A stretch of DNA of 64,000 bases from Ditylenchus dipsaci. Lineage: Eukaryota > Nematoda > Chromadorea > Rhabditida > Anguinidae. Positions 26,720-52,621 of the stretch are shown here, piece by piece; the stretch's first letter is position 1; each line of letters opens with the position of its first letter. Below the pieces are notes generated by a model. The model was not told the DNA's origin. It worked only from the letters and a program-made list of their open reading frames with translations, and did no database searches. A program made the translations under genes and the position numbers. The stretch covers positions 53,545 through 117,544 of the forward strand of contig SADC01000368.1 of NCBI GenBank assembly GCA_004194705.1. Direction: 5' to 3'.

Positions 26720-27632
26720 GGTAACACTTTACTTGGCCCCCCCCCACGGCTGACCCACTTTCGAGGTGAATTTTTGAAAACCGATTGCATATTCGTGTTT
26801 CTCGACCCGGATTTTTACGGGAAATGATCATCCGATTCTGTGAAAGTGAAAAAAAAATTTCGGGATTTGCCTTGATCCCCCAAGGTAAAATTTTAGAAAA
26901 ATTTGAAAAAAAAATATTTTTTAAATTGGCGCCTTTTGAATTTTAAAGGGATTAAGGGCTGTATTGGGAGGGGAAGGGAATAGAAGGGGGCCACTTTTAT
27001 GGCAGAACAATAGAAAGTAAATATATGTATTCTTCGACTGCCTCACCATGTTTTTCAACTGGGCCGTGGCAAAAGAGACTCTATACGCATTTTTTGATCA
27101 AGAGTACTTCTCGGAATTATGTCTAAGGTAAGTGAGTGCGCGCATCTCTAACTCTCAAGCCCCCTGCGCCCCCTTCGGGGCGCAGGGGCTTGGGGGCTTG
27201 GAGTTGAGATGCGCACACCCACATACCTTAGACACAAATCACTCGAAAGTGACTCTGGATGCATGAAAAAGCATGCATACCAGAGTTTATTTATGCGGTA
27301 GGACCCAGTATTCAAAACTATGTTCAACATCTTCTTGTTAGGGGCCTTGTGTGATTAGTGGCCCTGTTTATTCCCTTCCCCTCCCAATACAGCCCTTAAT
27401 CCCTTTAAAATTCAAAAGGCGCCAATTTAAAAAATATTTTTTTTCAAATTTTTCTAAAATTTTACCTTGGGGACCAAGGCAAATCCCAAAAATTTTTTTT
27501 TCACTTTCACAGAATCTGATGATCATTTCCCGTAAAAATCCGGGTCGAGAAACACGAATATGCAATCGGTTTTCAAAAATTCACCTCGAAAGTGGGTCAG
27601 CCGTGGGGGGGGGGGCAAAGTAAAGTCTAGCC
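26720..27632. mobile_element. hAT-type foldback carrying hairpin core 1
   Basis: A 913-bp element starting GGTAACACTTTACTTGGCCC and ending with the near-inverse, with a perfect 8-bp duplication GATCTTAC (26712-26719, 27633-27640). Arms of about 280 bp (26735-27000 and 27355-27620) hold the CCTTG.TCCCCCAAGG block. The centre is the conserved hairpin core. The arms are unrelated to those of the 47811 and 51887 elements. Confidence 0.85.
27121..27286. other. conserved three-hairpin core, copy 1
   Basis: A 113-bp stem from GTCTAAGGTAAGTGAG (27121) to CACATACCTTAGAC (27233) contains GCGCATCTC pairing with GAGATGCGC, and CAAGCCCCCTGCGCCC pairing across a TTCG loop (27174-27177). Then come the small hairpin CACTCGAAAGTG (27240-27251) and a third hairpin from ACTCTGGATGCATG to CATGCATACCAGAGT (27252-27286). 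Copies 2 and 3 are at 48086 and 52179. Whether it is transcribed is unknown. Confidence 0.75.
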
Positions 27633-27771
27633 GATCTTACTTGATATCAATTTGGTGCTATGCTTGAATATCTTAGTTATGCCATAACTACGTTCCATCT
27701 AGTATTTTGTTTCACTTCAAGCATAAAGCCACATGAAAATGGCCGTGGGTAACAATCTAACTTATGACTTA

Positions 27772-27910
27772 CTGTATAACCTCTGGTAATCCCCCATCCC
27801 TAATTTTTTTGACTAAGATTTTAAATTTAAGGCCATTTTTGATTTATGATTCCGAAATTTTTCAAGGGTTGAAAATTAATCCCCATGGGAGATTCGTAGA
27901 GGTTATACGG
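27772..27910. mobile_element. CCGTATT-family MITE, CTGTATAACCTC subtype
   Basis: A 139-bp palindrome with ends CTGTATAACCTCTGGTAATC and its inverse (GTAGAGGTTATACGG), with TA on both sides. It resembles the 59450 copy, which also reads TATAACNTCT. Confidence 0.7.
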
Positions 27911-28109
27911 TATACAAAATAAATTTTTGTTTGGTTGATTTTTTTTCTTGTTTTTCTTTTTTTCTCCAACTTTTTTACTTATCTTTATGTGAAAATTTTT
28001 CTTGGGTGTTTAGTAACTGAACGGTCATATTCATTTTCGTGGAAAAAAAACTTGTAACCCCCATTTATTTTGATATGTTTTTTTAGGAAAGCGTTATCGA
28101 AAGAATAAA

Positions 28110-29888
28110 ATGGCCAATCGACCTGGTGCTCGAACATCTGACGAGGTGACTTATCATTCTTTCTATGACAGTTCAGTGATAAGATAATGCTAGTGTGTGT
28201 GAAAAATATTTGTCGAAATCACTTCCTCCTCAGAGTCCACTTCTCCTCTTAAAAAATCCAGACAATATTTCTTGCCAAATATTTTACAAATGAGATTACC
28301 AAATGAGATAATTATGGAAGTAATATACTTCTTCGACATTTTCGAGTGCATAGCCAGTCTGGCAGTGTTTCCACGACTAGCAAGTCTTATTTCAAATCGA
28401 CTTTCCGTCGTAGGGGTAGTTACTTGTTTTAGTGACCATATTAAATGTTCTTTTAGAAATGGTATTCTCTATCTGTCCGTCTTCACGAATATCAGGATAG
28501 ACTGGCACAACTGTCTGCTGCTGCAAAAATTCGTGAGCTTACAGCTGAAGAAATGAGGGAGACAGTCAAGATTCCGAAAGATTTCGCCCTAGCCGAAGAA
28601 CAAATGCTCTCAAATTTGTCTGGTGAGTTTGACCACCTTTTTGACAGCATCTAAATTTTTTAAATTTAGAAAGCAATGTTCTGGAAATCACAGGAGTAGC
28701 CTTCACTTTCAATTATCAAAAGCTCATAGCCGAATGTCAGAACAAGCTGGTGAAGTCCATCCAAATTTCGCTCTCTAAGAAGCTCGTTTTGTCGTGCGCT
28801 TATAATTTGCCATTGCTGAAGGTTGGTGTTTAATAACTTCTACTAGCTCGTTTCACTGATCAGTTGATGCAATTTCAGAGTCATTGCATCAAAGGAATTC
28901 AGTCAATGACCCAGGATGAGCGCAGTGTTTTCTTTAAAGCAGCCAATGAAGAGCCAGAGATTGAGAGATACAATTCGATTCAGCTTCGCCAGTTCAATGA
29001 CGTGATTCTTTGTCCTACTTCCGTTACATCTGAGGAGGTGAATTGTGAATTTTTCATTAGGACAATTTAGTGGTTAGACAGTGCTAGTGTGTGCTAGAAA
29101 CATTTATTGATATCACTTTCGTTCCCTAGTCAACTTTTCATTGCAAAGAAAATCTGGATTATATTTTTGGCCAATGCTAATTCAAATTTGATTACCATAT
29201 GAAGTCACTATGTTGATAATCTATCTCGAGTACATAAAGAGTCTTAAAGTGTTTTCACAACTAGCAAGTCTTGTTTCCAATCGACTTTCAGTCTTTTTGA
29301 CCTAATGGAACGTTCTTTTAGACTTGGTATTCTCTATCTGCTCGTCTTCACGAGATGCAAGAGAGAGTGGAAGAACTGTCGGCTGCAGCGCAGATTCGTG
29401 ACCTCACAGCCAAAGAAATGAAGGAGAAAGTCGGAATCCAAAATAAGTTTGCTGAAGTCGGCCCACAAATGATTGCTATTTTGTCTGGTGAGTTTTGACT
29501 ACCTTTTTGACTGCACCCAAATTTTTTAATTTAGAGCGTAATGTAGTGGACATCACAGCAACTGCTGTTACTTTCAATTTCCCAGATGTTTTCGCGATTT
29601 GTGAACTGAAGCTGATCGAATTCGTGGATATCCCTCTGTCAAAGAAGCTGGTTGTGTCGTACGCTTATGAATTGCCATTGCTAAAGGTTGGTGTTACGTG
29701 AAATCTAGAGAGCTGGTCTCACTTGTTGCTTGGTTCAATTTCAGGGTCACTGCATAGATCAACTTCAGTTGATGAGTAAGGATTACGTTGTCGTTTTCTT
29801 CAAAGCAGCCAAAGAACATCCGGAATATGAAAGCTTTAATTTCGAACAGCTTCGCCAATTCAATGACCTGCTTATTCAAGCTTTGTAA
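28110..29888 (+). CDS. seven-exon gene with two tandem three-exon repeats, function unknown
   Basis: Exons 28110-28145, 28457-28622, 28670-28821, 28879-29037, 29322-29487, 29535-29686 and 29745-29888 join in phase, giving 324 aa. A T-rich acceptor lies 23 nt upstream of the ATG and AATAAA at 30103-30108. After a 12-aa leader, a unit of about 155 aa occurs twice. Exons 2-4 (166, 152, 159 bp) correspond to exons 5-7 (166, 152, 144 bp) with the same phases. Shared stretches include WYSLSxRLHE, LSAAAxIRxLTAxEM, SKKLVxS.AYxLPLLK and VFFKAAxExPE followed by LRQFND. The long introns before exons 2 and 5 are also related in sequence. The first exon of each unit looks helical; the second and third look like a mixed alpha/beta domain. 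No signal peptide, membrane segment or known motif. I do not recognise the family. Confidence 0.85.
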
Positions 29889-30477
29889 CTTGTTGTTGTG
29901 TGAGGAGGGATAAAGTTCTGTTGTATTTTGTGGTTTTAATTATCATTTTCTTCATTCTGTACCAAGTTTTCTCATGTATTCTGTTAGCGCACATAATATC
30001 TTCATGTACCAATTTCCTTGTACCAATGTACCAAGAGCCAATGGATCTCTGTAAGCTTAGTATTTTCGCGCAGTTCTTGGAATGGTATTGGAGCGTCTGC
30101 AGAATAAAATGTACCTTCTGACAAAAAATCACTTCGCTTGCGGTATTTGGGATTTTTGTACATAGTTTGGCCGGAATCAGATATCTATATTCTATATTTA
30201 ACATACCCTCTCTGATAACAGACGTACCCAGGTTACTTTGAGGACCTAAGTCTAGGCCTACAATCAATATTTTGGACTACTTTTTATTGCGTTAACTCTC
30301 ACGAGAGTGGTATCCATCTGCAACAAAATAATTCTTAACTATTGGGAGATTCTTACATATCGGGGACTCACATAAAATCCGTTCAACAAATGAAAGATTC
30401 AAACAACGTCGTTTTCACAGAAAGAAAGATACGGATTTTGTGTGAATTTCCCATCATTTGAATAGTCTCTGTGTGAG
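29889..30477. other. 3' flank of the repeat gene, no further gene
   Basis: Contains the polyadenylation signal at 30103-30108 and a small palindrome (30373-30445, ACTCACATAAAATCCGT and ACGGATTTTGTGTGA). Confidence 0.4.
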
Positions 30478-32012
30478 GGACACGGATATTTCACCGTCTG
30501 TATTATTTCACCGTTTGTATCATTTCACCGTCGGGTCATTTAACCGTCCGTATTATTTCACCGTCTAGTAACTCGACCTCATTATGATTCAATAGAATCT
30601 TTTTTTAAATGACGAGTTCTTATCATATTTTGATATCTTTACTCTCAAATATTTTTCCTTTATACGATTATCCACCTCCAGAATTCAAAAATTTGGGTTA
30701 AGCTGAGAGTAATTAAAATCATCGTACCCTATCCAGAAACGTGTCTTGAAATGGTTTGGTCATGCTAAAACAGCTACTTCACTAACAAGAACCCCACTTC
30801 TGAAGTATTGAAATGGTAACTTGCCTACACCGTTTTCGGCTTTTAGGTTGTTTTTATAATGAAATAAAAACTTTCAGAGGAGGGGAGGGCTTTAGCCCGG
30901 TTAGCCACCACTCCCCCCTGGATATGTCCTTGGTAGTATCACAGAGAAAGTAGTACTCAGGTGGTAGTACCAAGGCACTGACAGTGTATCAATACTCAAG
31001 TGTCTAGGTAGTGGTATTTGGGTGGTGGTAGATGCTAGCCTCTAGGTAGTAATACTCCGATAATATTAGTACGCACTACCGGGTTGTATACTAGACAATT
31101 TTCGTGGATAATCATTTTTTTCGGCGCAAATACACTTTTTTTTGGCGCAAATACACTTTTTCTTGGTGCAAATTTACTTTTTCTTGGCACAATTACATCA
31201 TACCGTCTTTCTTCTTATTTATTTCAAAAATTTTAAATTTTTTTTCTAACTAAATTGCACATGTTATTGAAACAGAAACCAGTTATAAATAGGGTTGGGT
31301 GATGGCTGATAACCTTGTTTAATTCATTGGGACGGGATATATGCTGAAAAGTCTTCGGGACGGGACGGGACGGGATGGGATTCCCGTCCCGTCCCAAGCC
31401 ATCTCTTATCGAAAGTACATACTTCTCTGCTCTATTAGAAACCACCAGAATCCCAGGGTAGATGGCCAAACACGAATGAAGAGTTTTTTAGAAGTTTTTC
31501 ATACAAACAATCCTAAATTCTGGTCTGAAGTGTGAATTTTACTTTTGAACCATACTCCTTAAAATCTTTCTAATGTCTTAAAAAGGGGTACCAGTGATAC
31601 CCCAAGGGTATACATTTTGTGGGTAAGTACCGGAAACCCCGGGCTATGTTCATTTATTATGCCTTATAATGTTGGGGTTAAGTAAAGTGGGGTAAAGGTT
31701 AGTAGTAAAAAATAAAATTTTAAATTAACAAGGAAACTTCTCAATACTAAAAAAAGAAAACGTCTCGTGTCGGGACAAGTCTTTGTGGATGGATTCGCTT
31801 AAATCCAATGTTTCCTGGTTTTTCAGTCTCGATAAAAAGCTTTTAACAGCTAAAATATGCAGAATAACACGTAAAAATTCAACTAAGAATTCAAAGGTGC
31901 CAAATGCCAACAAAAATTTTTTCAACGGTGAAGTGATATAGACGGTGAAATGACTTGGACGGTGAAATGATACATACGGTGAAACGTACGTACGGTGAAA
32001 TGACACGGACCC
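30478..32012. mobile_element. MULE-like element with TATTTCACCGTC arrays
   Basis: Left array 30478-30575 (about five copies of TATTATTTCACCGTC) is inverted at 31918-32012. Ends are GGACACGGATATTTC and, reversed, GGGTCCGTGTCATTTC. The 9-bp duplication is CTGTGTGAG (30469-30477, 32013-32021). The interior contains a half-copy of the TGGCGCAAATACAC array (31107-31190), a CGGGACGGGA block (31325-31400) and GTAGTACTCAGGTGGTAGTACC-like repeats (30930-31070). No gene. Confidence 0.75.
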
Positions 32013-32029
32013 CTGTGTGAGTCTCCCTA

Positions 32030-32370
32030 TTTTTGAAAGCTTTTTCCAGTTCTGTTTTGACAGTCTGATCGAAAATATCGTCAGGATTCCGATTTTGTCG
32101 ATTGTTTTTTAAAAATCCTGCAATTTCGACATTAAAAAGGCAAAACCTTGCACCCTTTTTTGAAAAAGGGTGCCGGCTTATCGAGGTTTTATTTTTCTAC
32201 CCAAATTTTGTTTTCTTTTCAAAAAACGAACGGCAAAATCGGAATCCTGACGATATTTCCGACCAGACTATAAAAACAGAACTGGAAAAAGCTTTCAAAA
32301 ATTAGGTTAAAAAAAGTGTCGGACCCAAGGCTGGAACGAACTTTTGGGGGTGCCGGCTTTATCGAAAATT
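32030..32370. mobile_element. pogo-type MITE, GGGTCCGACACTTTTT family (copy 3, left end cut)
   Basis: Arms AAGCTTTTTCCAGTTCTGTT and ATCGTCAGGATTCCGATTTT are inverted at 32225-32300. The right arm alone keeps GTGTCGGACCCAAGGCTGGA and GAACTTTTGGGGGTGCCGGC. The left terminus appears to be missing. Confidence 0.6.
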
Positions 32371-32610
32371 TCCATTCGGGAATTTTCGATGAAACGCCTT
32401 ATGCCAAATCAAATGAAATTGACCGATTTCGGTATGCCGGGTCGCAGACGAAATTTTTCAGATAAAAATATAGAAAGTGAAATAGTCATTTGATAGAGAA
32501 ATGAAATGTAGCACATAAATGTGAAATGTTCAGCTAAATTTTGTAGCTCCTGATCTATCGGAGCAATTCACCCGATTTTGATTAAAAGGTGGCAAGATTT
32601 CAGTTATTTT

Positions 32611-33007
32611 TAGGATTGTCAGACGTTCGAAGTTATCGAACGTACGGTTCGACGAACGTTCGAATTTGAAATTTTCGAACAAACGTTTGGTTCGAAGTTC
32701 GGGTTCGAAAATTTTCGAACGTTCGGTTCGATTCGGCCTTTTTTCGAATTTGAACTTCAAAACGAGCCCAACCCATTTTTGATGCCTTTTTTATGATGGT
32801 GCGCATGTTTGGTCAAATCTTTTTCGTGTTTCTAAGTATTTATTGAAAGTATTTGGCACGAAATTTGATATGTTTCGAATCAAACGTTCGGTTCGAAATT
32901 CGAATTTGCAAATTTTCGAAGGAACATTCGATTCGAAGTCGAACGTTCGAAAAAAATCTCGAACATTTCGAACAATGTCTTAAAGAACGTTCGATTCGAC
33001 AACCCTA
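32611..33007. mobile_element. hAT-type MITE with TTCGAACGTTCG arrays
   Basis: A 397-bp element with ends TAGGATTGTCAGACGTTCG and TTCGATTCGACAACCCTA and a perfect 8-bp duplication GTTATTTT (32603-32610, 33008-33015). The interior is many copies of TTCGAACGTTCGGTTCGAA. Confidence 0.85.
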
Positions 33008-33436
33008 GTTATTTTATTTGAAATTTGAAAAAGGGGCAAGAAAAAATAAAAAAGGGCAAGAATTCAGACTTCAGGGCAACAATTCAATTTATAAAAAATT
33101 TAAAAACACATATAAACATATTGACACACTCTGCCCCATAGTTTTTGCCGTTTCTAGTCTGTGCTCATAGATTCAAATGATTCCAGCTGCCTGCAAATGA
33201 AACCAGTCACTACAAATCACTCAAAACCAATGAGTTAACTGTGACCAACGAATGGGAAGGCATAATTGGAAGAACACTGCGTATAGTTTGCATTAACTGT
33301 AGACTAGGCATGGATTATTTAGGTGGTTGTGCAATTCTTGGTCGTTCTGGTAATGAAATGTTTATTAACAATTTACAGAATAATTTTTGGACTATAATAT
33401 TTGGATTTTAGAAGATGAAGTGTTTTTGGAGAAAGA

Positions 33437-34930
33437 CTAGTGTGGATTGAGCCTGCCCACTACTCCACACGCTAATATGTTTCTTTTAAATGTTGTGCTA
33501 TGTGATGGACTCCAATTGTTGCTGGCTGCTGGACCATCAAACAATATTACTCCTCTGCCAATTATACTGTTTTTGCCGTAAAGTGACATTTTGTAATTTT
33601 CATGAGTGCGCAACTGGAAATTATTAGTGCATATCACCATATTTTTTGCTGACCAAAATCATATTATCACTCCTAACCCACCCTAGATTGTTGCACCATT
33701 CCCAAAGTGCCAGCCCAAGGTGTTCGAAAGTGTTTGTGGTCAGTGGGATGGTGTGCGGTAATGCTAGCACATCCCTCTGTCATATTGCCATACTCTACTA
33801 TGCCCACCCAATAGCTCCTGTTTGGCTCTAGTCCTGAATACGCATACATTGTCTTGAAGAGAGAGAAACATTAACGGTATCCACCTGTGAAATGTCCTTT
33901 GATCAAGGTGGGAGCATTACTTCTGTATGGCTGTTGAAAAAGTACTTCCCCACTGATTCGGCCACTCTCACTATTCATTCTCGCCATCCCTTTTAGGGTA
34001 TCTAAAGAAAGTATTGAATTTCATTTTTTCTTCTTTAAAGTTTACCGCTACAGATCTAGTTTTTAATGAGGTATTACTTGATCCATGGTGAATAGAATAA
34101 ATTACAGTCAATTTAAAACAATCAATAAAAAAAGGAGTACTTTTAAGGAGTAGTTGCCCAAAATCCTACATTCAAACCCAGACCCACATCCAAGCCCAGA
34201 CCGGCTTGTGGAAATTCTGCTAAACGAGATCGGCAAAAAGATAATTGGCAAACGATATTTGTTGCTGAACCAAGTAGCTTAACACATGCTATAGCATGGT
34301 TTGGTAGCTAAAACTTTTTATTTTTAAACCAGGCAATGTAGTGTACTCACGCTCTCGATGGATCAGTTAAGCGTGCCTGGCCCCCCGACTCTCACTCATG
34401 TTCACAATAAAATTTGAATGTGTCAAAAGTGACGAATGTAGGTGTAGAGTTTAAATGTTCACATCGAGAGTGTTGATGCAGGTGCGAAAATGCACATGGG
34501 CGTAGCCAGGGGGCGGGGCTCAGAAGGCTATACCCTGCTCCGGTCAGATTTGTCGAAAAAATTGTTAATTAAAAACACTATGAAACTCGAAAACGGTGCA
34601 GCTAAAATGACCCTCCCCTTCAGATTTTTAGACTACACCTCTGAAGATGCGTGTAGGTGCTATTGTGGATGTGCCTTTATAGGTTAGAATCTCTTGATCC
34701 GAAAAAATTAAAATAATGGTTGAAAAAGCATCGAATTTTAAAATTTACTGGTGAAATTATCACTTTAATTGGTTAAATCAATTTCAGCCTTATTTTTAAT
34801 TGACATGTGGCTTAGGTTTGTATTTAACTCCAAATAAATTCACAGCAATTACCTATGTATTGGTGTTGAGCCCACCCAATATGAACAAAACCGGCAGCAA
34901 ATACCATTTCACACCAATATATTTGCACAT
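33437..34930 (-). CDS. secreted Cu/Zn-SOD-like protein without copper ligands, copy 2
   Basis: Minus-strand exons: 34853-34930 (signal peptide, ATG at 34928-34930), 33885-34001, 33682-33833 and 33437-33613 (stop TAG). Introns are 851, 51 and 68 bp. The SOD fold is seen in order: RISGEVLFQQ; HFTGLEPNRSYWVGIVEYGN; MTEGCASITAHHP; WAGTLGMVQQSR; YKMSLYGKNSIIGRGVILFD; NILACGVVGRLNPH. It aligns with classical SOD at the disulfide pair (TEGC and ACGVVG) and the structural Gly residues. The copper ligands are replaced (HVH becomes WVG, VVHE becomes ILFD), so dismutase activity is not expected. Exon 1 is one base shorter than in copy 1, which shifts the frame: either a real lesion or a sequencing error. 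Exons 2-4 are clean. Confidence 0.8.
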
Positions 34931-35220
34931 CTTCACTTTCAATCCAAATTGATCCAAACTCTTAGTTTCAACAAAATTAGGTCATGCAATGTCTGAGTTC
35001 AACAGCAGAGCAATAAAATATTTATTGCTTTCAATCTAAATGCTCGCAAAAACAAAGATTCGCATTGCAAATTTCATTTCTCCGCCAATGACACAAAGAC
35101 ATAGAGAAGCACAAAAAAGTCATAGCAACTCTTGACTACAGTTATCGCCCACAATTGCAGGGTATTTGGCCGGCGAAGCAGATCATCTGCAATTGGATTT
35201 GCTATAGCTTTGGTGATTTA
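34931..35220. repeat. duplicated block shared with 21514-21870
   Basis: Upstream flank of SOD-like copy 2, nearly identical to that of copy 1, ending near GCTATAGCTTTGGTGATTT (35198-35218). Marks the edge of the segmental duplication. Confidence 0.7.
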
Positions 35221-35906: not shown

Positions 35907-36527
35907 ACTGGTGACAAATAAGTTGCCGATAGATTGCCGATGGAATCTGAAACACTTTCCCTTAACGATAGAATTATGATTCAAAATTTGGACAAAGGGT
36001 GAAGGGAAGGAAAAATAATTTATGCAGAGCATGTATATTTCACTACTTAAACTTTATTTTCATTTTAATCTTCAAAGGTTTACATTTTTGTCTTTTGAAT
36101 TTGTCTTTTGAATTTCGTCTTTTGAAAATGAGTGATTTACGGGCAGGAATAGTGCGGCTTTACCAAGAGGGGCATGGTGTAATGGATATTTCCCGCTTGC
36201 TCAATGTTCCGAAACAAACGGTGAGCAAAGCGATCAAGATATTTGAAGAGACCGGCAGCAACGAAGACAGGACAACGAGCGGGCAACCTGTGACATCGAC
36301 AACAGATGAAAATATTCAGCTAATTGCCGATAGAATCTGCTTAGCAAATTTATCTAACCAAATTTATTTTTTCTTACCAAATTTATCCAAATTTCCTTCA
36401 AGTGTATATACCATTTTAAAGAGGAAGGAAAGGGCTACAAAACCGTATGTTTGGAATATTTTTACGAAATAAATTTTGTCCCAAACAATTAGCCCGGATG
36501 TTGTCCACGAACTTATTTGTCACCAGT
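35907..36527 (+). mobile_element. mariner/Tc1-type element, 621 bp, internally deleted
   Basis: Ends ACTGGTGACAAATAAGTT and its exact inverse, with TA on both sides (35905-35906, 36528-36529). The length is half that of a complete mariner. It keeps the start of a transposase gene. Confidence 0.85.
36128..36340 (+). pseudogene. mariner transposase N-terminal DNA-binding region
   Basis: From ATG at 36128: MSDLRAGIVRLYQEGHGVMD, then ISRLLNVPKQTVSKAIKIFE, then an SGQPVTSTTDENIQLIADRI stretch. This is the first helix-turn-helix of mariner-type transposases, followed by the GRP-like linker (here GQP) and the beginning of the second helix-turn-helix. Similarity ends near IADRI; the frame continues into unrelated AT-rich sequence, and the DDD catalytic domain has been deleted. 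Confidence 0.8.
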
Positions 36528-36529
36528 TA

Positions 36530-37183: not shown

Positions 37184-37319
37184 CCGTATTTCCCTAATAG
37201 AGACCCCCCCTTGTTTTTCGACTGGGATTTCGGAGTTATGGCAATTTGTGATTTACAATTTCAAGATTTTGGGCATCCGAAAAATAAAGCCCCCGTGGGG
37301 TCTATTAGAGAAAATACGG
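37184..37319. mobile_element. CCGTATT MITE, AGACCCC subtype
   Basis: A 136-bp palindrome: CCGTATTTCCCTAATAGAGA...CCCC and its inverse, with TA on both sides. Confidence 0.8.
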
Positions 37320-39369: not shown

Positions 39370-39602
39370 GGCGCTAGTAGCGAATACCCCCTCCCCAAGC
39401 ATCCGACCTTTAAAAATTGCTGTAACTACCCTTCCAATAACAAGTTTAGGCTTAGCCCTTAGGCTTGGGGGTAGGCCAGCGTACGGAAGTTGTGACTAAT
39501 GAAGAGTTTGCGCACATTTTCCGGGGTCTGGGACATAAATTTGCGTACTTTTTACTAAAGTAAAAAAAGTGAAAATCGTTGGGGGTATTCGCTACTAGCG
39601 TC
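39370..39602. mobile_element. MITE-A copy 2 (hAT type), intact reference
   Basis: A 233-bp element starting GGCGCTAGTAGCGAATACCC and ending GGTATTCGCTACTAGCGTC, with a perfect 8-bp duplication AAAATCTG (39362-39369, 39603-39610). Copies: 674, 52698, 60164, 63662; the element at 47811 shares only the ends. Confidence 0.9.
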
Positions 39603-42054: not shown

Positions 42055-42063
42055 GATTTTGTG

Positions 42064-44056: not shown

Positions 44057-44449
44057 TAGGGTTGTTACACAGTTAATTCATTTTTAAAAAAATTTGACCT
44101 TATTCATTGTTTTTATGATAATTTTTTTATAAAATTTTGAGCGCGTTATCACACGATTAAAAGCTTAGAATTTTGGTCACCCAATGGTGAAAAAATTTCT
44201 CTGTCTAGTTTACAAAAATGTATATATTTTATTAGGAATGCTTTCGAATCACTTTCGAGCTTTTAATTCGAAAGTGTTTGTTATAAAATATTCAAATTTT
44301 TGTGAACTAAACCATGAAATTTGTATGCCATTAGGTTGCCAACATTCTAAGCTTTCAATCGTGTGGTAACGTGCTTAAAATTTTAGAAAAAAAAAACAAT
44401 ATATAAGGTCAATTTTTTTTAAAATCGAGTTAATTGTGTAACAACCCTA
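44057..44449. mobile_element. hAT-type MITE, TAGGGTTGTTACAC ends
   Basis: A 393-bp element starting TAGGGTTGTTACACAGTTAA and ending with the inverse; flanks CTCCTAAC (44049-44056) and TTCCTAAC (44450-44457) match at 7 of 8. The interior is a long AT-rich palindrome around AAGCTTAGAATT and AACATTCTAAGCTTT. Confidence 0.8.
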
Positions 44450-44457
44450 TTCCTAAC

Positions 44458-45294
44458 TAGATACCACAAAACAAGTTTAAGTCGGTGGCATTATTGAAAT
44501 CAACATCAAAAAGTAAGGAAAGACCTCCAACAAATATATACCACAAAATAAGGCAGGTAATAAAATATTGAGAGGTGTTACCGCCTGCATTTCCTTGAAC
44601 TCTGCATAGTTAAACAATGAAAAAGGAAAAAAGTTCGGAAATTAACGTCCACCAATTATTTGATTACTCAAACTTTTTAGTAAAAAATGCTAAAACGCAA
44701 TTTAAAACCTAAGAAAAAATTTCTAACTACAATTACTTGGACAGTGCGACAATGCGTAGGCTACGTACAACGATGGAAAAATTTAATTCCAATTTTTGAA
44801 GACACTTAGTATCAATTTTTTTAGATATTCACCTGCTAAATGGCAAAACACACCCAATAAAAAACAACTTAGTACTTTATTTGCAAAAATCCAGCCTAGA
44901 AACTAGAATCGAGAAAGAATTGAGTATGCCTTGGGCCGGAAACAAGCGAAAAAGTAAGTCACGCTAAAAGTTAAATAAGTTTTATATTTTAAATAACCAA
45001 AACAATATTATTCAGGAAACATAGTTACTATTTTTTGCGAAAAAGTTTAAAATAGTAAAATATACTGTAACATAACCTTATCAGGTTCATAGGCGTCCAA
45101 GGAAAGGCGGCTAGCTGGGCTAAAGCTCTACCCCCCCCCTTCCTGTCAGGATTTTTCTAACTTTTCAAGTCTTTTTAGCTCTTTTAGCCTCCCTCCCGCT
45201 AGAAAATCCTGTCTACGCCTATGATCAGGTCTAGTATAGAAAGAAATAGAAAGCATACAGTAGATTGTCGGCTCTCTTCCACAAATAGGGGGGA
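44458..45294. other. no gene recognised
   Basis: A small palindrome at 45085-45225 (TAGGCGTC..., CTCTACCCCCCCCTTCCTGT). Rest AT-rich. Confidence 0.4.
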
Positions 45295-45540
45295 GTGTTG
45301 GTCGGGGGGGGGGGGGCCTTGGTCCCGCCTGTTGTTTTTTTTTGTGATTTTTTAGGCCAAGACAAGGGTAGGCCAGCGTATGCTATGACGTACTCAAATA
45401 TTTCTGAGACTCATGTTTCAGTCTGTCCTAACATACGCTGGCCTATCTTTGTCTAAACCTAAGCCTAAAAAGTCCTATAAAAACAGCAAGGGGACCAAGG
45501 TGAAAAAAGCTCCCCATTGTGGAATAGGGCCCGATTGTCT
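45295..45540. mobile_element. foldback with CCTTGGTCCCGCCTGTTG arms
   Basis: Left TTCCACAAATAGGGGGGAG and GCCTTGGTCCCGCCTGTTG (45280-45330) are inverted at 45484-45530. A middle palindrome has AGGCCAGCGTATG and CATACGCTGGCCTA (45371-45450), a segment shared with MITE-A. No duplication resolved. Confidence 0.55.
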
Positions 45541-46106
45541 CGGATTTAAGTCACTCCTGAGAACCGAAAGCTAATGCCGGAAAACCGGGAGTAGGATGCA
45601 AAGCATAAAATCGAGACTCTACTGAAATATGAAAATAGAAAGAATTTTTATAAAAAATTGAAAATGAAACGAAAAATAATTTTAAAAATAATGCATTGAA
45701 AATAGCGTGGCTAAGCACAAAATTTCGAAATCAGGACATCTGGCCACTTTGATTAAAAATGACCGCTAGATGAAGAACCAGGTTCTCATTTTTCTGTTTT
45801 TCATTTCCCAACACTGCAGTAGCTCAAAAAGTTTTGCAGCTCATATATATAACAAAGTTGACGCAAACAATGCCACATCACCAAAAAAACAAAAGTTTCG
45901 TTCTAAGGAATCTTTTATGACCTACAAACTACCATGGCTAAAAGTAGCTATATAAAAGGAAAGGAACAAAAACATAGTTGGGAGCAAAGGCGGAAATCTT
46001 AAAAAGAAGTTTTTATCAAAACATCCGAATGAGGAAATAGCAAAAGTGCAAGTGAATAAAAAGAAAAAGCAACATGTTAACATCCATCATATTACTTATA
46101 GCAATA
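45541..46106. other. no gene recognised
   Basis: A 61-aa frame at 45770-45955 begins with a signal-peptide-like MKNQVLIFLFFISQHCSSS, but nothing else supports it. Confidence 0.35.
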
Positions 46107-46532
46107 CAGTCGACGCTATATATAAGAAATCCCCTCAAGTTCGTTTCCACCTAGGGTCCGGCACTTTTTTTAACCTCATTTCTGAAATGTTTTGCCAAAT
46201 GTGATTCGTCAGTATAGTCGGAATATCGCAAGGATTCCGATTTTGCCGATCATTTTTGAGAAATCATATAGTTTTGCTATGTTTATCCGCAACGCTCCAT
46301 ATAATATACCCCCAAATCTTAAAAAAGGGTATCTTATATGGAGCGTTGCCGGTAAAAATTGCAAAACTATATAATTTCTCAAAAACGATCGGTAAAATTG
46401 GTCTCCTTGTGAAATTTCTGACTAGACTGACGAATCACATTTGGCAAAACATTTCAGAAATGAGGTTAAAAAAGTGTCGGACCTTAGATGGGAACGAACT
46501 TGAGGGGGGCATCTTATATGGAGCGCCGACTG
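46107..46532. mobile_element. pogo-type MITE, GGGTCCGACACTTTTT family (copy 4)
   Basis: A 426-bp element, ends CAGTCGACGCTATATATAAG and the inverse (ATATGGAGCGCCGACTG), flanked by TA (46105-46106, 46533-46534). Arms carry GGGTCCGGCACTTTTTTTAA. The centre repeats the terminal GGAGCG..TATATGG motif. Confidence 0.8.
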
Positions 46533-46565
46533 TATTGCATTCTAATAAAATAAGTGTTGAAAAAA

Positions 46566-46998
46566 TTGGGCTCTGTACGTGTTGGCGGTGCCCCCGAAAA
46601 ATATGCCTCGGTCCTTCTGTCGATATTTTGGCTTTTGTTTAGGCGCACAGTAGGCCAGCGTTTTTTAGGGTGGACTCAAGAACTTTTTCTGACTAGTAAA
46701 AAGTTGGGGGAAAAATTGGAGTCTGTCCTAACATACCCTGGTTTACCCTGAGCCTAAGCATAAACCAGAAAAAGAGTTTTCAATTTTACATATTACTGTC
46801 GACACCGCTGTAATGATGTTCAAAAAGTTGTAAAAGATGTTTAGTTGAAGTGAAAACAATTTTTTTGTAAAACAGCTTGAAATTTTTTTTGTAAATTTTT
46901 TGAACAGTTTGAGAATTGTTTTGAAAAAAAATCAATAGAGGGGACCAAGGCATATTTTGTTTCGAGGGCACCGCCAATATATATAGAGCCGAAAAGTG
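46566..46998. mobile_element. foldback with GGCTCTGTACG / GGTCCTTCTGTC arms
   Basis: Left arm GGTGCCCCCGAAAAATATGC then CTCGGTCC (46585-46612) is inverted at 46930-46985. A second pair inside contains AGGCCAGCG / CTGGTTTACC-type MITE-A sequence (46630-46760). Confidence 0.5.
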
Positions 46999-47810
46999 CG
47001 TGTAGGCAAAAGTAGCTGGAACTGCTCAGCTTTCTTAGTGCTCATCCTCCTGGCACGCCTGAGACACACACATATTTACTGAGATGCAGAGCAAATAACA
47101 TTGTTGTTAACCGGACAAATTATATGAAATCCCACTAAAGAGGAAGTGGGAACTGAGTAATATTGAGGATAAATATTTGTTCCGGCAAATAAAAAGGTAA
47201 AATAATAGGCCTATAAGCTGTTTAGAAACATGGCACTTGAAAGTTTTTCTATATTTGAAAAAAAACAAGCTAATTAGCCTTGAATAATGCTTAAAATTTT
47301 GACGATCACATTTTCAGAAATGATAAAAATATTAAAAAAAACAGTCGACTCAATTTTTTGATTTCGAATATTATTCCAAAATATTCGAGAATATTCGACT
47401 TTTTTGGGCGGGCGGATGGTGGGGGCTGTATATGACAGTAGCGTCGGTTAATCCTCGAAATCGAATATTCGAGTCGACAACCCTACTAGACACCCTTTTA
47501 GCTCTTTCAGCCCTGATTTTTTTTTGTTTTGTTTGGTCAGTAATACCTTATAAAGTCATGGATTCCAGTTTCATACGACAACATCTTTGCCATAAAGACT
47601 CGCGGTTCTACAAATAATTCAACACCATATTTTCAAAACAGAGGGCCAGGTTACAGCAAATCACGGCAAAAGCAAAAAATAGCAACGTTAGGAAAAACTA
47701 CTGGTAAAATCGGAATACTTCCTATTTTTGGAATGATTAGGTTCAAAGAAAGCTGCTACAAGATTTCGAAAGCTTATTAATAAAATGTTCGACTCAGCGA
47801 AAGAATAAAC
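46999..47810. other. no gene; one MITE remnant
   Basis: 47340-47485 is a TATTCGA-rich remnant ending GTCGAGTCGACAACCCTA-like at the right. Otherwise AT-rich. Confidence 0.4.
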
Positions 47811-48534
47811 GACCCTAGTAGCAAATACCTACCCCCCCCCCAACAATTTTTTTTTCAAAATCAGGTTTTAACCATTTCTAAGTAATTCTTATGCGCTGAA
47901 AACGATAAAAAAGGTGTTTTCGGGCATTTTCTGACCTAAAAAATGATTTTTGGAAAAAAAAATTTTGATCAAAATTCGACTTTTTGGCTTGGGGGACCAA
48001 GGTATTCTACCTCGTTTTGTCACTGGAGCTAGGCAAAAAGAGTCTCCATATGCAGTTTATGATCAAGAGTCCTGCTCGGAATTATGTCTAAGGTGAGTGA
48101 GTGCGCGCATCTCTAACCAACCAAGCCCCCTGCGGCCCCTTCGGGGCGCAGGGGCTTGGTTGCTTGGGATTGAGATGCGCACACCCACATACCTTAGACA
48201 CAAATCACTCGAAAGTGACTCTGGATGCATGAAAAAAACATGCATACCAGAGTTTCTTTATGCGGTAGGCCCCAGCTAACAAAACTATGTTCAAATCCCA
48301 TCGTTTTAGGACTCTAGGTACCATTTTCAGGTGGTTTGCCTTGGTCCCCAAGGCGAAAAGTCAAATTTCGGTCAAAAAATTTTTTCTCCAAAAATCAATT
48401 TTTTAGGTCAGAAAATGCCCGAAAACACCTTTTTTATCGTTTTCAGCGCATAAGAATCACTTAGCAATGGTTAAAACCTGATTTTGAAAAAAAAATTGTT
48501 GGGGAAGGGGGGGGGTTTATTCGCTACTAGCGCC
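47811..48534. mobile_element. hAT-type foldback carrying hairpin core 2; MITE-A-like ends
   Basis: A 724-bp element, left end GACCCTAGTAGCAAATACC, right end GCTACTAGCGCC, with a perfect 8-bp duplication GAATAAAC (47803-47810, 48535-48542). Arms of about 200 bp contain TGGCTTGGGGGACCAAGG and its partner. The tips match MITE-A, the arms resemble those of the 51887 element, and the centre is the hairpin core. Confidence 0.9.
48086..48253. other. conserved three-hairpin core, copy 2
   Basis: Stem 48086-48199 (GTCTAAGGTGAGTGAG to CACATACCTTAGAC) with TTCG at 48140-48143, then CACTCGAAAGTG (48206-48217), then ACTCTGGATGCATG to CATGCATACCAGAGT (48218-48253). In the main stem GCGGCCCC replaces GCGCCCCC. 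Confidence 0.75.
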
Positions 48535-48542
48535 GAATAAAC

Positions 48543-49031
48543 ATTTAGGGGTTGCCTGGTTATCTGGACCAGAAGTGTGCACGAGCCAGGATGTCAAGGT
48601 CTAATCGGCAAGGCCCAATACTTTTTCTGCGTTTTCAAGTGGCTACAGAATGAAAAATTACACTATGAATAGACAGCCCTAACATTTAATTTCATCTAAA
48701 AAAATTTAAGCGAAAATAACTAAACTGAAGTCGCAGCCTAGGCTTTTATACATCAAACCTGCAGAAAAAAGAATTAGGGTGGGTGTAAATATTTAATGCA
48801 AAATATTTCATTAAATCAGTACAGTTTACACGTACACACTATTATTATCAGCAGCAGTAGCCATAATAGATGTAACGATATTAACAAACATCAAGTGCAG
48901 GTGCAAATTGTTAAATAGGAGTTAGTAAAAGAAGGGCAGTAATGCCGTCACTAGTAATAACTCATAAAAACGTGTTTTATAAATGGGCTAAATATAAATT
49001 GTGAAATAATAAACAACACATCATCCATCCG
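48543..49031. other. no gene recognised
   Basis: 48947-49028 recurs as a direct repeat around 50560-50576 plus 51092-51165 (ATGCCGTCA, TAATAACTCATAAAAACG, AACAACACATCATCCAT). Confidence 0.4.
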
Positions 49032-50560
49032 TTGCTGCTTCTATCCCACTATCTGGTGTCAAAATATGCCTTGTTCCCCCTGTTCATAACGGTTAAGGCA
49101 ACATTGTACCAACTAATTTTTGCCCCAGAAAAGCTTCGTCCGTTTTGCCTAAATTTGAAAAAAATCAAAAAGATGCACCACACAAGTAAAAAATAAAAGT
49201 ACTTCTGAAGGAGCAAATTCAAAAAAGGCTCACCCCAATTTTTGGCTCAAATCGAAACACCCGTAAAAATCCTTAAATCTCCCGTCAAATTTTTAAAACT
49301 TCTTGTTCTCAGTGTTTACTTTTCAAATTTTTATTTTTTTGCACCAACATGTAGCCCTGAATCTCTAGTTTTCAATGAGATATCAACTGGCTTAATACAA
49401 TATGAAAACGTAGGAGAAAAATCATACTTTTTAAAACTACAGTCGAACGTCTCATTAACATACTCCCCATTAACATACGCTCTCTCATTAACATACGGCT
49501 GGGCCCGGTCCCGTTATAACAATTGGCTCTCCCATTAACATACAGTCGATCCTTTTTTCGAATTACATCCTTTTTTACAAAAAAAATTCTACAAAATCTC
49601 AATTTTTTTATAAAAAATTGAAAAAAGGTTGAGGGACCAAGGAAAATATTTTTTAGTTTTTTTTATAAAAAAACTGCCTTGGTCACGCAAGCTGATTTAA
49701 CTGAAGGATGTTTTCTGAAATTGACTGAGGGGTGTGTTCCGAATTCGACTAAGGACTCTGTTCCAAATTTGGCCTTAAAATTGAATGGACTCTCCTATTA
49801 ACATACACTATGCTGAATTATGGAATCTGGATCTCTCATTTACATACTCCCCATTAACATACACCTCTCATTAACATACGGCTAGGCTCGGTCCCAAGGG
49901 TGTATGTTAATGGGAGGTTTGACTGTACAACTATTTTTTCAAAATTTTCAAAATAATTCAAAATAATTAGAGATTCAGGGCTACATGCTGATGCGAAAAA
50001 ATTGAAAAATAAACACCGAGAACAAAAAGTTTTAAAAATTTGACGGGAGATTTAATGATTTTGACGGAAAAATTTACATATTAATTATTTTGACGTGTGT
50101 TTTCACCTACAGCCTGAATTTATATGATATCACTTGATTCTGACCAAAATTATTTTTGACCAAAATTCAAACTGATAATAATAATTTGGCTTGACAAGAT
50201 TTTTTTGAATGAAACTTGTGATCCCTTTAAGTTTTTTGGAAAAGCTATTTAAGTTTGAAAAAGTGGCCTCGGTGTCGCTGTTGATTAGCGCTTGTGTTTG
50301 ATGGCCTAAAATTGTGCGTAGGTTCCATCCCACATGGTTGCACACTGGCTTATTTAACCATTTTCCCGGGGAAGTTGAGTTTTAGAGAGCCAGATTCGGA
50401 ATCAGCGACCCCATTGACCCAGGCATTGATCAAATAGGCCAAAATAAATAGTGTGCCACCAGGTGGAATAGAACCTGCGCGTCATTTTGAAGGCATTTTT
50501 CAAGAAAAAAACACAGGAGGGACAAGCCATATTTTGGCGTCAGATAAAGTAACAGAGCCA
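49032..50560. mobile_element. nested foldback with ATATGCCTTGTTCCCCCTGTT arms
   Basis: Outer arms at 49048-49095 and 50500-50545. A second inverted pair, 49255-49385 and 49965-50075, includes TGTAGCCCTGAATCTCTAG. A pogo-type element sits in the centre. No gene; the signal-like frames are palindrome shadows. Confidence 0.55.
49440..49925. mobile_element. pogo-type MITE with CTCATTAACATAC arrays
   Basis: A 486-bp element starting CAGTCGAACGTCTCATTAAC and ending GGGAGGTTTGACTG, flanked by TA (49438-49439, 49926-49927). CTCATTAACATAC occurs about four times at the left and four at the right. Confidence 0.8.
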
Positions 50561-50576
50561 TGCCGTCAGTAATAAC

Positions 50577-51083
50577 TAGGGTTGGAATAAGACCGCTCCG
50601 AATCTTTTTCGGGAATATTCCCAGTCTACATCTTTTTTTCCGGTTCGATTCGGTCCAAATCTTTTTATGTCCAAATAACTAAAAAAATTAAACAAATCAT
50701 GAAAAATCGATCAAAATATTTAAGGAATACATCAAATCTTCATCAAAATATAACACCATTAAAAACGGTAGTTATATATATTTTAGAATATCTGGATACC
50801 CGTTCAGGTTGGTTTACCTTGGCCCATCAACAAAAAGTCAATTTTTGGTCAAAATTTTTTTTATCAAAAGTGTCAAGCGCCACTTAAAAACATGTTTTAA
50901 GCATGATTTCAGGTGTTGAAACATTGAAAAAGATGATTTTGGGCAATTTTGGGTCACTTAGGGATTCTTCACTCCAGTTAAAATGTTTATTTTCAAAAAG
51001 ATTCGGACCGATTTTTCATTGTCAGTCCGAATCTGAGATTTGGACCAGGAATAAACCGGGAATATTCCTATCACCCAACCCTA
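50577..51083. mobile_element. hAT-type MITE, TAGGGTTGGAATAAG ends
   Basis: A 507-bp element with ends TAGGGTTGG and CCAACCCTA and a perfect 8-bp duplication GTAATAAC (50569-50576, 51084-51091). The ends carry GGGAATATTCC and CGAATCTTTTT motifs. Confidence 0.85.
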
Positions 51084-51091
51084 GTAATAAC

Positions 51092-51886
51092 CCATAAAAA
51101 CGTTTTTTAAAAATGGGCTCAAAATAAATTCTGAAAAAAATAAACAACACATCATCCATTTAGCCTAGTTTCCACATGGCTAAAATTAGTTAAAATTACA
51201 CAAAAGAGATCTGCACCGCCAATTTGTTAGCCAGTTGAATAATTGAGAAGTTAGCCTATGCGTCACCCACTTTGGGCTATTAGCCTAACTTTTAAAGTAA
51301 TTAAGGGTTGGCAGGAGGGAGGAAATGGAGGAAACACCTCCGCAAAATATTTACTACTCGCCATTTTCTTATATAGTTTTAAAAACTGTAATTTAAGAAC
51401 AGAAAGAGATTTCCCCTTGTGTAGGCCACACTTAAATAGGGAAACAGGAAATATTTTTTTCACTTTTCCTAGACATTTTCAGCGTGCTTTTAGTTTGGAT
51501 AGTTAAAAAACCGCTGCGTATAGGGTTGTCAAATCCCCTGAGCAATTGTAAATCGTGGAATCACTTAGAGAATTCGCCGTAAGACGGGGAAATAGGTAAA
51601 ATTAAATCATATTGTAAGACCTCTTTCTTGGTCCCGGCTTACATGTGCTGGTCTACTCTATGCCTAAGGTTTCGCCTAAATTTGAAAAAAAATCAAAGAG
51701 ATGCACCAAACAATCAAAAAATTAATTAAATTCGAAAGGCGCAAATTCAAAAAAAGTTAGGCACCTGGACCAGGGATACTTATCCCTGATTTTGAGGGTC
51801 GGCTGGGTGAACTCGCAGTTTCGGTCCTATCAAACCCAATTCATCACACTATTTCACTATTTTTTTATTATGCTCAGTTTTTGCTC
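51092..51886. other. no gene recognised
   Basis: AT-rich. The overlapping frames at 51258-51506 mirror each other on both strands and have no splice support. Confidence 0.4.
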
Positions 51887-52621
51887 GGAACTTATGTACT
51901 TGGGGGGGCGCATTTTTTGCACATTTGTAAATCATGTTTAAACGACTTCTAAGTAATTTTTATATGCTTAAAACGATTAAAAAGTTGTTTTCTGACACTT
52001 TTCCACGCAAAAAATAGATTTTTTGAAAAAAAAATTCTTTGGCCAAAATAAGACTTATTGCCTTGGGGGACCAAGGCAAAACACCTTGTATTAAGGATTC
52101 TACCGCGTTTTGGTCACTGGAGCTGGGCAAAAAGAGTCGCTTAATGCATTTTTGATCAAGAGTCTTGCTCGGAATTATGTCTAAGGTAAGTGAGTGCGCG
52201 CATCTCTAACCATCCAAGCCCCCTGCGCCCCCTTCGGGGGCGCAGGGGGCTTGGTTGCTTGGGGTTGAGATGCGCACACCCACATACCTTAAACGCAAAT
52301 CACTCGAAAGTGACTCTGGATGCATAAAATGTATGCATACCAGAGTTTCTTTATGCGGTAGGCCCCAGTCAACAAAACTATGTTCAAATTCCATCTTTTT
52401 GTGGTATCCAGGTACCCTTTCAGGTTGGATTTCCTTGGGGACCAAGGCAAAAAGTCAAATTTTAGTCAAAAAATTTTTTTTTCAAAAAAACGATTTTTGT
52501 GTGGAAAAGTGTCAGAAAATGACTTTCTTATCGTTTAAAGCACATAAAAGTTACTTAGGAGTCGTTTAAACATGATTTACAAATTAGTAAAAAATGCGCC
52601 CCCCCCAAGTAAATAAGTGCC
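51887..52621. mobile_element. hAT-type foldback carrying hairpin core 3
   Basis: A 735-bp element starting GGAACTTATGTACTTGGGGG and ending with the near-inverse (CCCAAGTAAATAAGTGCC), with a perfect 8-bp duplication TTTTGCTC (51879-51886, 52622-52629). Arms of about 200 bp hold GCCTTGGGGGACCAAGGC. Tips differ from the 47811 and 26720 elements. Confidence 0.9.
52179..52346. other. conserved three-hairpin core, copy 3
   Basis: Stem 52179-52294 with TTCG at 52233-52236 and a longer perfect GC stem (CCCCCTGCGCCCCC with its complement), then CACTCGAAAGTG (52301-52312), then ACTCTGGATGCATA to TATGCATACCAGAGT (52313-52346). The loop-closing G-C of copies 1 and 2 is A-T here, a paired change. Confidence 0.75.

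What the first reader, a model, noticed from the sequence alone, without database searches (positions are those of the whole stretch)
27121..52346. Structured three-hairpin core reused in three different foldback transposons
About 170 bp (27121-27286, 48086-48253, 52179-52346), plus flanks from TGATCAAGAGT to GTAGG.CCCAG, is conserved between elements whose arms and tips differ. Each copy has a ~113-bp stem capped by C-TTCG-G (an extra-stable loop in RNA), then CACTCGAAAGTG, then a third hairpin. The third hairpin shows a paired change: G-C closing in copies 1-2, A-T in copy 3. In the main stem, both sides lengthen together in copy 3. Both strands also read AAGGTA[AT]GTG, a donor-like site at the stem base. 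Conservation of structure in the centre, while arms turn over, suggests a selected RNA or DNA structure (processing, packaging of hairpin ends, or a parasitic small-RNA gene).
Basis: partly seen in the sequence, partly recalled or inferred. Interest (0 to 1): 0.8.

Follow-up and report, generated by a model that had tools for sequence, protein, structure and literature searches.

The report
Conserved core shared by foldback transposons
What is probably a stem nematode genome holds thousands of copies of a hairpin-forming core that sits at the centre of gene-less jumping elements whose arms and tips differ, which suggests the core itself helps them spread, although how is not shown.

Summary
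The three cores are real and lie at the dyad centre of three palindromic elements (26720-27632, 47811-48534, 51887-52621), each flanked by an 8-bp target-site duplication. The genome (227 Mb, probably Ditylenchus dipsaci) holds 5,116 exact copies of a 23-base piece of the core. Duplications and ends point to the Merlin superfamily; Merlin transposases are present (at least 124 matches), but none of five transposase-bearing stretches had the core inside it and a sixth is unclear.

Across arm families consensus cores are 90-97% identical while arms are mosaic, 60-75% alike or unalignable. Within an element it reverses: arms match each other better than core halves do. Single-copy variants are spread evenly, but variants shared by four or more copies are depleted in the main-stem base (5 per 58 sites, flanks 29 per 74; p=0.007). 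This points to selection on source copies.

Selection on an RNA fold is not shown: 4 of 65 pairs changed on both sides, none in the stem base; three stem mismatches persist. Best reading: Merlin-type non-autonomous elements with a conserved central domain, comparable to the conserved domains of SINEs.

The parts
26712..26719 (.). left 8-bp target-site duplication GATCTTAC of element 1
   Evidence: sequence
26720..27632 (+). element 1, 913 bp, tips GGTAACACTTTACTTGG / GGCTAGACTTTACTTTG
27121..27233 (+). element 1 main stem of the core (apex TTCG at 27174-27177)
27240..27251 (+). element 1 second hairpin CACTCGAAAGTG
27252..27286 (+). element 1 third hairpin, G-C closing pair
27633..27640 (.). 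right target-site duplication GATCTTAC of element 1
47803..47810 (.). left target-site duplication GAATAAAC of element 2
47811..48534 (+). element 2, 724 bp, tips GACCCTAGTAGC / GGCGCTAGTAGC
48086..48199 (+). element 2 main stem of the core
48206..48217 (+). element 2 second hairpin
48218..48253 (+). element 2 third hairpin, G-C closing pair
48535..48542 (.). right target-site duplication GAATAAAC of element 2
51879..51886 (.). left target-site duplication TTTTGCTC of element 3
51887..52621 (+). element 3, 735 bp, tips GGAACTTATGTACTTGG / GGCACTTATTTACTTGG
52179..52294 (+). element 3 main stem of the core
52301..52312 (+). element 3 second hairpin
52313..52346 (+). element 3 third hairpin, A-T closing pair
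52622..52629 (.). right target-site duplication TTTTGCTC of element 3

Best explanation
The three features are non-autonomous, palindromic DNA transposons of the Merlin type. They have no gene, ends of the GG...CC kind, an 8-bp target-site duplication and long inverted arms, and are presumably moved by Merlin transposases encoded elsewhere in the genome (shown: ends, duplications and presence of Merlin genes; inferred: who moves them). The core is the old, asymmetric dyad centre of the palindrome. Arms and tips turn over, and the two arms of one element are kept alike, probably by template switching or conversion through the hairpin (shown: the pattern; inferred: the process). The core halves are not homogenised and stay nearly constant across families with unrelated arms, because source copies that lose the stem-base sequence leave few descendants (supported by the private/shared variant test). 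The most likely role is an internal cis-acting domain that helps mobilisation, as internal sequences do in some other MITEs, by binding a protein or by bringing the ends together. It works as sequence plus DNA palindrome rather than as a demonstrated RNA fold (inferred).
For: Exact 8-bp duplications with G...CC ends in 30 of 56 armed copies (rows, some elements counted twice) against 0 of 660 mismatched left/right pairs; without the end condition 36 of 56 against 46 of 332, and at 9 bp 8 of 56 against 28 of 324. PF12762 transposase: at least 124 matches in the genome. Ends of Merlin-bearing L079 (GGCGCTAGTAAAGAATCC) resemble element 2 (GGCGCTAGTAGCGAAT); L081 is a Merlin element with a 7- or 8-bp duplication. 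L084: a complete core element lies beside a Merlin-fragment element with 41-bp inverted ends, and AAAAAATA flanks both. Core 23-mer 5,116 exact copies, reversed control 0. Consensus cores of four arm families 89.8-97.0% identical (substitutions only) while arms are mosaic, 60-75% or unalignable. Cross-group identities: main stem 0.928 with arms 0.727/0.739, and 0.925 with arms 0.563/0.411. In 253 of 253 element pairs the same core half is more alike between elements than the two halves within either element; for arms the reverse holds in 163 of 253. Single-copy variants 0.48-0.67 per site in stem and flanks; shared variants 5 in 58 stem-base sites against 29 in 74 flank sites, Fisher p=0.0075. 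Inverted apex in 13 of the first 100 of 1,067 copies, and copies in which one side reads as the reverse complement of the other (L027, L056; stem base only in L042, L045), show DNA-level hairpin turnover.
Against: No transposase-bearing element with a core or matching arms was found. Of six stretches read, L079, L080 and L081 have none; L084 and L085 have cores only in separate neighbouring elements (L085 was read only in part, L080 is not clearly bounded); L082 has a core about 150 bp from a transposase exon and is unclear. No duplication was found around L079. Module exchange could make arms look older than the core without selection. The stem-base test is one test on 59 copies with regions chosen after seeing the structure; against the inner stem it is only p=0.052. 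In the recent GGTAAC subfamily the main stem is less conserved than the arms, and between the most distant groups the main stem is down to 0.832-0.859. Most copies were fetched by a 23-base exact match, so hairpin 2 and the start of hairpin 3 are biased. No mobilisation, transcription or protein binding was tested.
Confidence: 0.6

Rival explanations
1. Neutral module exchange: one young core was carried along while arms and tips were repeatedly replaced by copying from other, older Merlin-type elements, so the core only looks conserved.
For: Outer arms switch while an inner-arm block of 56-59 bp stays 91-93% alike between families F1 and F2. Main-stem identity between the GGTAAC and GACGCT tip groups (0.925, 25 cross pairs) is no lower than within the GGTAAC subfamily (0.916).
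Against: Shared variants are depleted in the stem base while single-copy ones are even. Core variants follow the arm families (F1+F2 against F3+F4). Arms of F4 and element 2 are homologous at 74.5% on both sides, while elements 2 and 3 (element 3 belongs to F4) have cores 92.6% alike.
Confidence: 0.25
2. The core is a parasitic structured RNA gene, for example read from the minus strand and ending at the T4-T5 run next to GAGTCTC.
For: The minus-strand RNA folds better in 58 of 65 copies, by 8.3 kcal/mol on average. The T-run is present in the three window copies. The commonest hairpin-2 variant (13 of 100 listed) would be a G-U pair on the minus strand. For the plus strand, one-sided stem cells lean to wobble-making changes (82 to 64, unpaired sites 45 to 80, Fisher p=0.001). 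Cells with both-sided changes exceed all shuffles (24 against 7.9).
Against: No Rfam family at the gathering cut-off, only sub-threshold hits, mostly miRNA precursors. The two strand signals point opposite ways, and distinct one-sided stem events are even (39 to 36). Mismatch offset 14 varies among A, C and T opposite C. 4 of 65 pairs with both-sided change is reached by 155 of 500 shuffles; the 24 cells are mostly two lineage changes inherited by many copies.
Confidence: 0.12
3. A DNA hairpin or cruciform is the selected object (for end processing, replication restart or evading repair), with the exact sequence secondary.
For: Apex inverted in 13 of 100 listed copies while the stem is kept; lineage-level changes at hairpin 3 and at one inner-stem pair keep pairing.
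Against: The stem base keeps three mismatches (59, 60 and 59 of 65 copies). Paired changes are few and each may be one event or a conversion.
Confidence: 0.15

Closest known systems
Merlin superfamily (IS1595-related) DNA transposons (PMC8101967: abstract and passages seen)
   Same: 8-bp duplications, GG at the ends, inverted repeats within the published 24-462 bp range, transposases of this family present in the genome
   Different: no transposase in these elements; left end GG in 22 of 30, otherwise GA (7) or GC (1); long foldback arms; a conserved central domain
SINE highly conserved domains (CORE, V and others) and MER6, a mariner-type MITE that carries the V domain (PMC6887750: abstract and passages seen)
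   Same: a central domain kept nearly constant while other parts of the element change
   Different: here several tip and arm families of a DNA transposon share one core and it is palindromic; no SINE relative is known to me, and none was searched for beyond Rfam
Tm1, Mutator/Foldback elements of root-knot nematodes with a histone-hairpin motif (PMC3169594: passages seen)
   Same: nematode, foldback-shaped, asymmetric terminal motifs, structured motif inside a non-autonomous group
   Different: Mutator type, mostly 9-bp duplications, 39 copies identified in M. incognita; its sequence was not compared with the core here
Galileo (P superfamily) of Drosophila (PMC4168063: passages seen)
   Same: long dynamic arms; sequence inserted in one arm becomes part of both
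   [quoted passage not shown] here the centre is
mPing and Stowaway MITEs with internal sequences that promote or inhibit transposition (PMC9921582: passages seen)
   Same: internal sequence can matter for mobility
   Different: tested experimentally there; its authors found no promoting internal sequence shared between mPing and mPong

Membership tests
Merlin superfamily | 8-9-bp target-site duplication | tested here: met
   30 of 56 against 0 of 660 mismatched pairs with the end condition; 36 of 56 against 46 of 332 without it
Merlin superfamily | terminal GG at both ends | tested here: inconclusive
   of 30 elements, the first G on the left and GG on the right were part of the search condition; second base left is G in 22, A in 7, C in 1; third base right is C in 28
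Merlin superfamily | terminal inverted repeats of 24-462 bp | tested here: met
   alignable arms of 79-271 bp, 79-98% alike, in the 56 armed rows
Merlin superfamily | IS1595-type DDE transposase in the element | tested here: not met
   no ORF of 120 aa or more inside the three elements; expected for a non-autonomous derivative, so I file them only as Merlin-type non-autonomous elements
Merlin superfamily | a transposase-bearing partner with the same arms or core | tested here: inconclusive
   at least 124 PF12762 matches, 6 stretches of them read; ends of L079 similar, arms and core not shared; L082 unclear
MITE | short, non-coding, inverted ends, high copy number | tested here: met
   three window elements 724-913 bp without ORFs of 120 aa; 5,116 exact 23-mer copies
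Foldback (FB) elements | long arms built of internal tandem repeats | tested here: not met
   Tandem Repeats Finder on the three elements finds only arrays of 2-2.4 units: four rows in element 1, none in element 2, one in element 3; foldback in shape only
SINE with conserved domain | pol III head and retrotransposed tail | tested here: inconclusive
   transposon-type ends and 8-bp duplications; no tRNA gene in the window and no Rfam match at the gathering cut-off; promoter boxes not tested
structured RNA gene | compensatory changes above controls and transcription | tested here: inconclusive
   4 of 65 pairs with both-sided change, reached by 155 of 500 shuffles; 24 two-sided cells against 7.9 in shuffles; covariation score 0.047 against 0.038; transcription not testable

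The most novel reading that the evidence does not exclude
A DNA-transposon counterpart of the SINE conserved domains: one selected central domain, under constraint above all in its stem base, persists through thousands of copies of non-autonomous Merlin-type elements that repeatedly exchange arms and tips and so may use different Merlin transposases. The domain, not the ends, is the lasting unit of descent.
Probability: 0.35. Interest if true: 0.72.

Novelty: new variant of a known kind. Interest (0 to 1): 0.5.

Why it matters
MITE families are usually recognised by shared ends with changing interiors (recalled). Here the interior is shared and the ends change, as in SINEs with highly conserved domains, whose function is an old open question. 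With thousands of copies in one genome, a private-versus-shared variant test can locate the constrained bases without any experiment, which makes the question testable.

Tried and rejected
Known RNA family: the Rfam gathering search of the window and a permissive search of the core of element 1 gave nothing above cut-off. tRNA gene: none in the window. Prokaryotic or viral origin: a 19-base core pattern had no exact match in viral contigs or genome contigs. Compensatory evolution of the stem: weak. Wobble asymmetry as a sign of the transcribed strand: cells 82 plus-strand-wobble to 64 (unpaired sites 45 to 80, p=0.001), distinct events 39 to 36 (unpaired 12 to 19); third-hairpin intermediates G.T 282 and A.C 220 beside G-C 3297 and A-T 1623, a slight excess that a shared subfamily could explain. 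Core as part of an autonomous Merlin: not found in five of six stretches, one unclear. Spliced-leader RNA or intron-like roles of the donor-like sites: considered, nothing tested. Rows dropped: 10 of 62 cores before (shortened or rearranged; the flipped L014 copy was kept) and 6 of 65 before (four rearranged copies, two near-duplicate loci). Apex and hairpin-2 states were counted by eye on the 100 rows shown; the pattern requires the F1/F2-type left stem. The pooled tip-group rows mix within- and between-group pairs, so cross pairs alone were recomputed.
Full report
Where it is. The window is contig 367, bases 53545-117544, of a 226,978,389-base genome in 1,359 contigs. The Ditylenchus dipsaci draft has 227,234,012 bases in 1,394 scaffolds and GC 37.5% (PMC6929663, whole text). 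A Merlin transposase frame from this genome matches, at 69% identity over 57% of its length, a protein recorded under a Ditylenchus name (the species name is cut off in the listing). I take the organism to be probably D. dipsaci; this is inference.

The observation. The three cores are at the stated coordinates and are the only three in the window found by blastn. They sit at the centre of three palindromic elements with ungapped arm matches of 213 nt at 87%, 135 nt at 93% and 138 nt at 85%. Folding of the main stem is far below shuffles; that of the stretches with hairpins 2 and 3 only moderately. Each element is bounded by an exact 8-bp duplication: GATCTTAC, GAATAAAC and TTTTGCTC.

How many. 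The 23-mer CACTCGAAAGTGACTCTGGATGC has 2,621 forward and 2,495 reverse exact matches; the reversed control has none. A pattern that leaves the second hairpin free has 4,853 matches; in the 100 rows shown 68 have the exact hairpin. Some matches are in tandem arrays. From the fetched loci and the window I collected 122 distinct copies, 65 of them with a full core. Most were fetched by the exact 23-mer on contigs C1-C7, and eight (L001-L008) as best matches to copy 1, so conservation inside the 23-mer is biased upward.

What kind of element. Of 56 rows with clear arms (a few elements appear twice and L054/L055 are near-duplicate loci), 30 have an exact 8-bp duplication next to G...CC ends; 660 mismatched left/right combinations gave none. 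Without asking for the ends the numbers are 36 of 56 and 46 of 332, and at 9 bp 8 of 56 and 28 of 324. The third base of the right end is C in 28 of 30 and the second base of the left end is G in 22 of 30; the outer G and GG were required by the search. Merlin elements are described with terminal GG, 8- or 9-bp duplications and 24-462-bp inverted repeats (PMC8101967, passages). The Merlin transposase domain PF12762 has at least 124 matches in this genome. L081 holds such an element with ends GGTTCTAG, flanked by ATAAGATG if its left end has one G, or ATAAGAT if it has two; L079 has an end GGCGCTAGTAAAGAATCC, close to GGCGCTAGTAGCGAAT of element 2, but no duplication was seen. In L084 a complete core element lies directly beside an element with a Merlin transposase fragment and 41-bp inverted ends, and AAAAAATA flanks both. 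Of the six transposase-bearing stretches read, L079, L080 and L081 have no core (L080 shows only 35-bp, 77% matches); L084 and L085 have cores only in separate neighbouring elements (L085 was read in part); L082 has a core about 150 bp from a transposase exon and stays unclear. The link to Merlin is therefore by ends and duplications, not by shared arms.

Core against arms. Sixty copies with both arms long enough were compared. In 843 pairs with no detectable arm similarity on either side the core identity has median 86.8% (range 69-96%). Arm families F1 (23 copies), F2 (11), F3 (9) and F4 (5) have consensus cores 89.8-97.0% identical, counting substitutions only (2-6 gap columns besides). Their arms share only pieces: a 56-59-bp inner block at 91-93% between F1 and F2; F4 against element 2 74.5% over 169-180 bp on both sides; F3 against element 2 60-65%. 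Elements 2 and 3 have cores 92.6% alike and arms 75-78% alike where alignable. Core variants follow these families, which speaks against rampant conversion of the core between families. Between tip groups, cross pairs only, the main stem is 0.928 (GGTAAC by GGTTGC; arms 0.727 and 0.739), 0.925 (GGTAAC by GACGCT; arms 0.563 and 0.411), 0.832 (GGTAAC by GGAACT; arms 0.413 and 0.434) and 0.859 (GACGCT by GGAACT; arms 0.418 and 0.389).

A reversed pattern. Left and right core halves are homologous: the left flank aligns with the reversed right flank. In 23 complete elements the two core halves of one element are 0.679 identical (median, gaps counted), while the same halves in two elements have medians of 0.909-0.965 by class of arm similarity and a minimum of 0.821, in 253 of 253 pairs higher than within either element. 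For arms the opposite holds: within-element identity has median 0.818 (range 0.384-0.855) and exceeds the between-element value in 163 of 253 pairs. Arms are kept alike within an element; the core is kept different between its halves and alike between elements.

Selection or not. Mutations after insertion should fall evenly. Variants seen in one copy do so: 0.54 per site in the left flank, 0.48 and 0.55 in the two sides of the stem base, 0.67 in the inner stem, 0.61 in the right flank (0.39 in hairpin 3 and 0.14 in hairpin 2, both biased by the seed). Variants shared by at least four copies, which passed through source elements, are 29 in 74 flank sites but 5 in 58 stem-base sites. Of these five, two are at the freely varying mismatch position and one lies just outside the paired stem. 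Fisher p=0.0075; with variants of 2-3 copies added p=0.012; against the inner stem p=0.052 (59 copies). This supports selection on source copies and speaks against a lower mutation rate. The regions were defined after seeing the structure, so a test on all copies is needed. Within tip groups the picture is mixed: in GGTAAC the main stem (0.916) is less conserved than the arms (0.959, 0.966), in GGTTGC level (0.935 against 0.924, 0.944), in GACGCT and GGAACT higher (0.965 against 0.885, 0.799; 0.939 against 0.824, 0.798).

Is it the structure? On 52 of 62 alignable cores 96.3% of cells pair, but only 4 of 65 pairs have a change on both sides (155 of 500 shuffles reach that), none in the 25-pair stem base. 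The 24 two-sided cells exceed every shuffle (mean 7.9), as does the covariation score (0.047 against 0.038); 22 of the 24 come from two pairs whose changes are inherited by many copies. In the stem base three mismatches persist: A.A in 59 of 65; at offset 14 A, C or T opposite C in 60 of 65; C.A in 59 of 65. One-sided stem cells lean to plus-strand wobble (82 to 64, against 45 to 80 in unpaired sites, p=0.001), but distinct events are even (39 to 36; unpaired 12 to 19). The minus-strand RNA folds better in 58 of 65 copies. The two signals disagree about the strand. The third hairpin's closing pair is G-C 3,297, A-T 1,623, G.T 282, A.C 220 genome-wide. Of the 100 rows shown of 1,067 copies with the apex left free, 13 have the loop inverted to GAAG. 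In L027 and L056 the left flank, and in L042 and L045 the left stem base, reads as the reverse complement of the right. These are signs of DNA-level hairpin copying, which can make paired changes without selection on an RNA.

Mechanism. I think these are Merlin-moved elements in which the centre is a cis-acting domain under selection while arms and tips are replaced through palindrome-based copying. Internal sequences that change MITE mobility are known from mPing and Stowaway (PMC9921582, passages); one arm taking on the other's new sequence is known from Galileo (PMC4168063, passages). Which protein or process reads the core is unknown; enhancement of mobilisation is my best guess.

Comparison and novelty. 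The nearest concept is the highly conserved domain of SINEs, also found inside the MITE MER6 (PMC6887750, abstract and passages). In nematodes, Tm1 is a Mutator-type foldback with a histone-hairpin motif (PMC3169594, passages). Full-text searches for Merlin with foldback or palindrome, Merlin MITEs with 8-bp duplications, MITEs with conserved cores, Ditylenchus with MITE or Merlin, end swapping, and foldback with template switching (at most 20 papers listed each) showed no description of these elements in the titles and abstract openings listed. I rate it a new variant of a known kind.

Noticed in passing
L039 (contig C6, bases 1-700) and contig C8 108035-108369: Tandem arrays of about 75-76 bp; on C6 the unit is the right half of the core (right stem, second hairpin, start of third hairpin) with a new junction; on C8 only positions and 33-base matches were seen.
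   Followed up: no
L080 1-4701: A palindrome of about 4.4 kb, arms 1.7 kb at 99.5%, with two inverted copies of a Merlin transposase gene, a minisatellite centre and a small element near each end; the palindrome extends past the outer elements.
   Followed up: partly
window 666-921, 39370-39586, 52897-53073, 60156-60402, 63662-63815: Matches to an element of about 255 bp in L081 with ends GGCTCTAGTATAGAATA / GGCGCTAGTATAGAATA and flanks sharing AAAATTC, probably another Merlin-type MITE family.
   Followed up: no
window 52706-52894: Inverted repeat TACAGTCAACTCTCGATA..., arms 96% complementary, just right of element 3; looks like a small TA-type element.
   Followed up: no
window 35999-36472 and 7275-7688: Fragments of a Tc1-like helix-turn-helix protein (above Pfam cut-off for HTH_23) and a possible Mutator-like transposase (below cut-off).
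   Followed up: no
stem base, offsets 10, 14 and 18 of the main stem (element 1 left side 27131, 27135, 27139): Three conserved mismatches spaced four bases apart; the middle one varies among A, C and T on the left but stays unpaired. Unexplained.
   Followed up: partly
main-stem base of the cores: Donor-like sites AAG|GTAAGT (plus strand) and AAG|GTATGT (minus strand) both lie in the conserved stem base; whether they are used is unknown.
   Followed up: no
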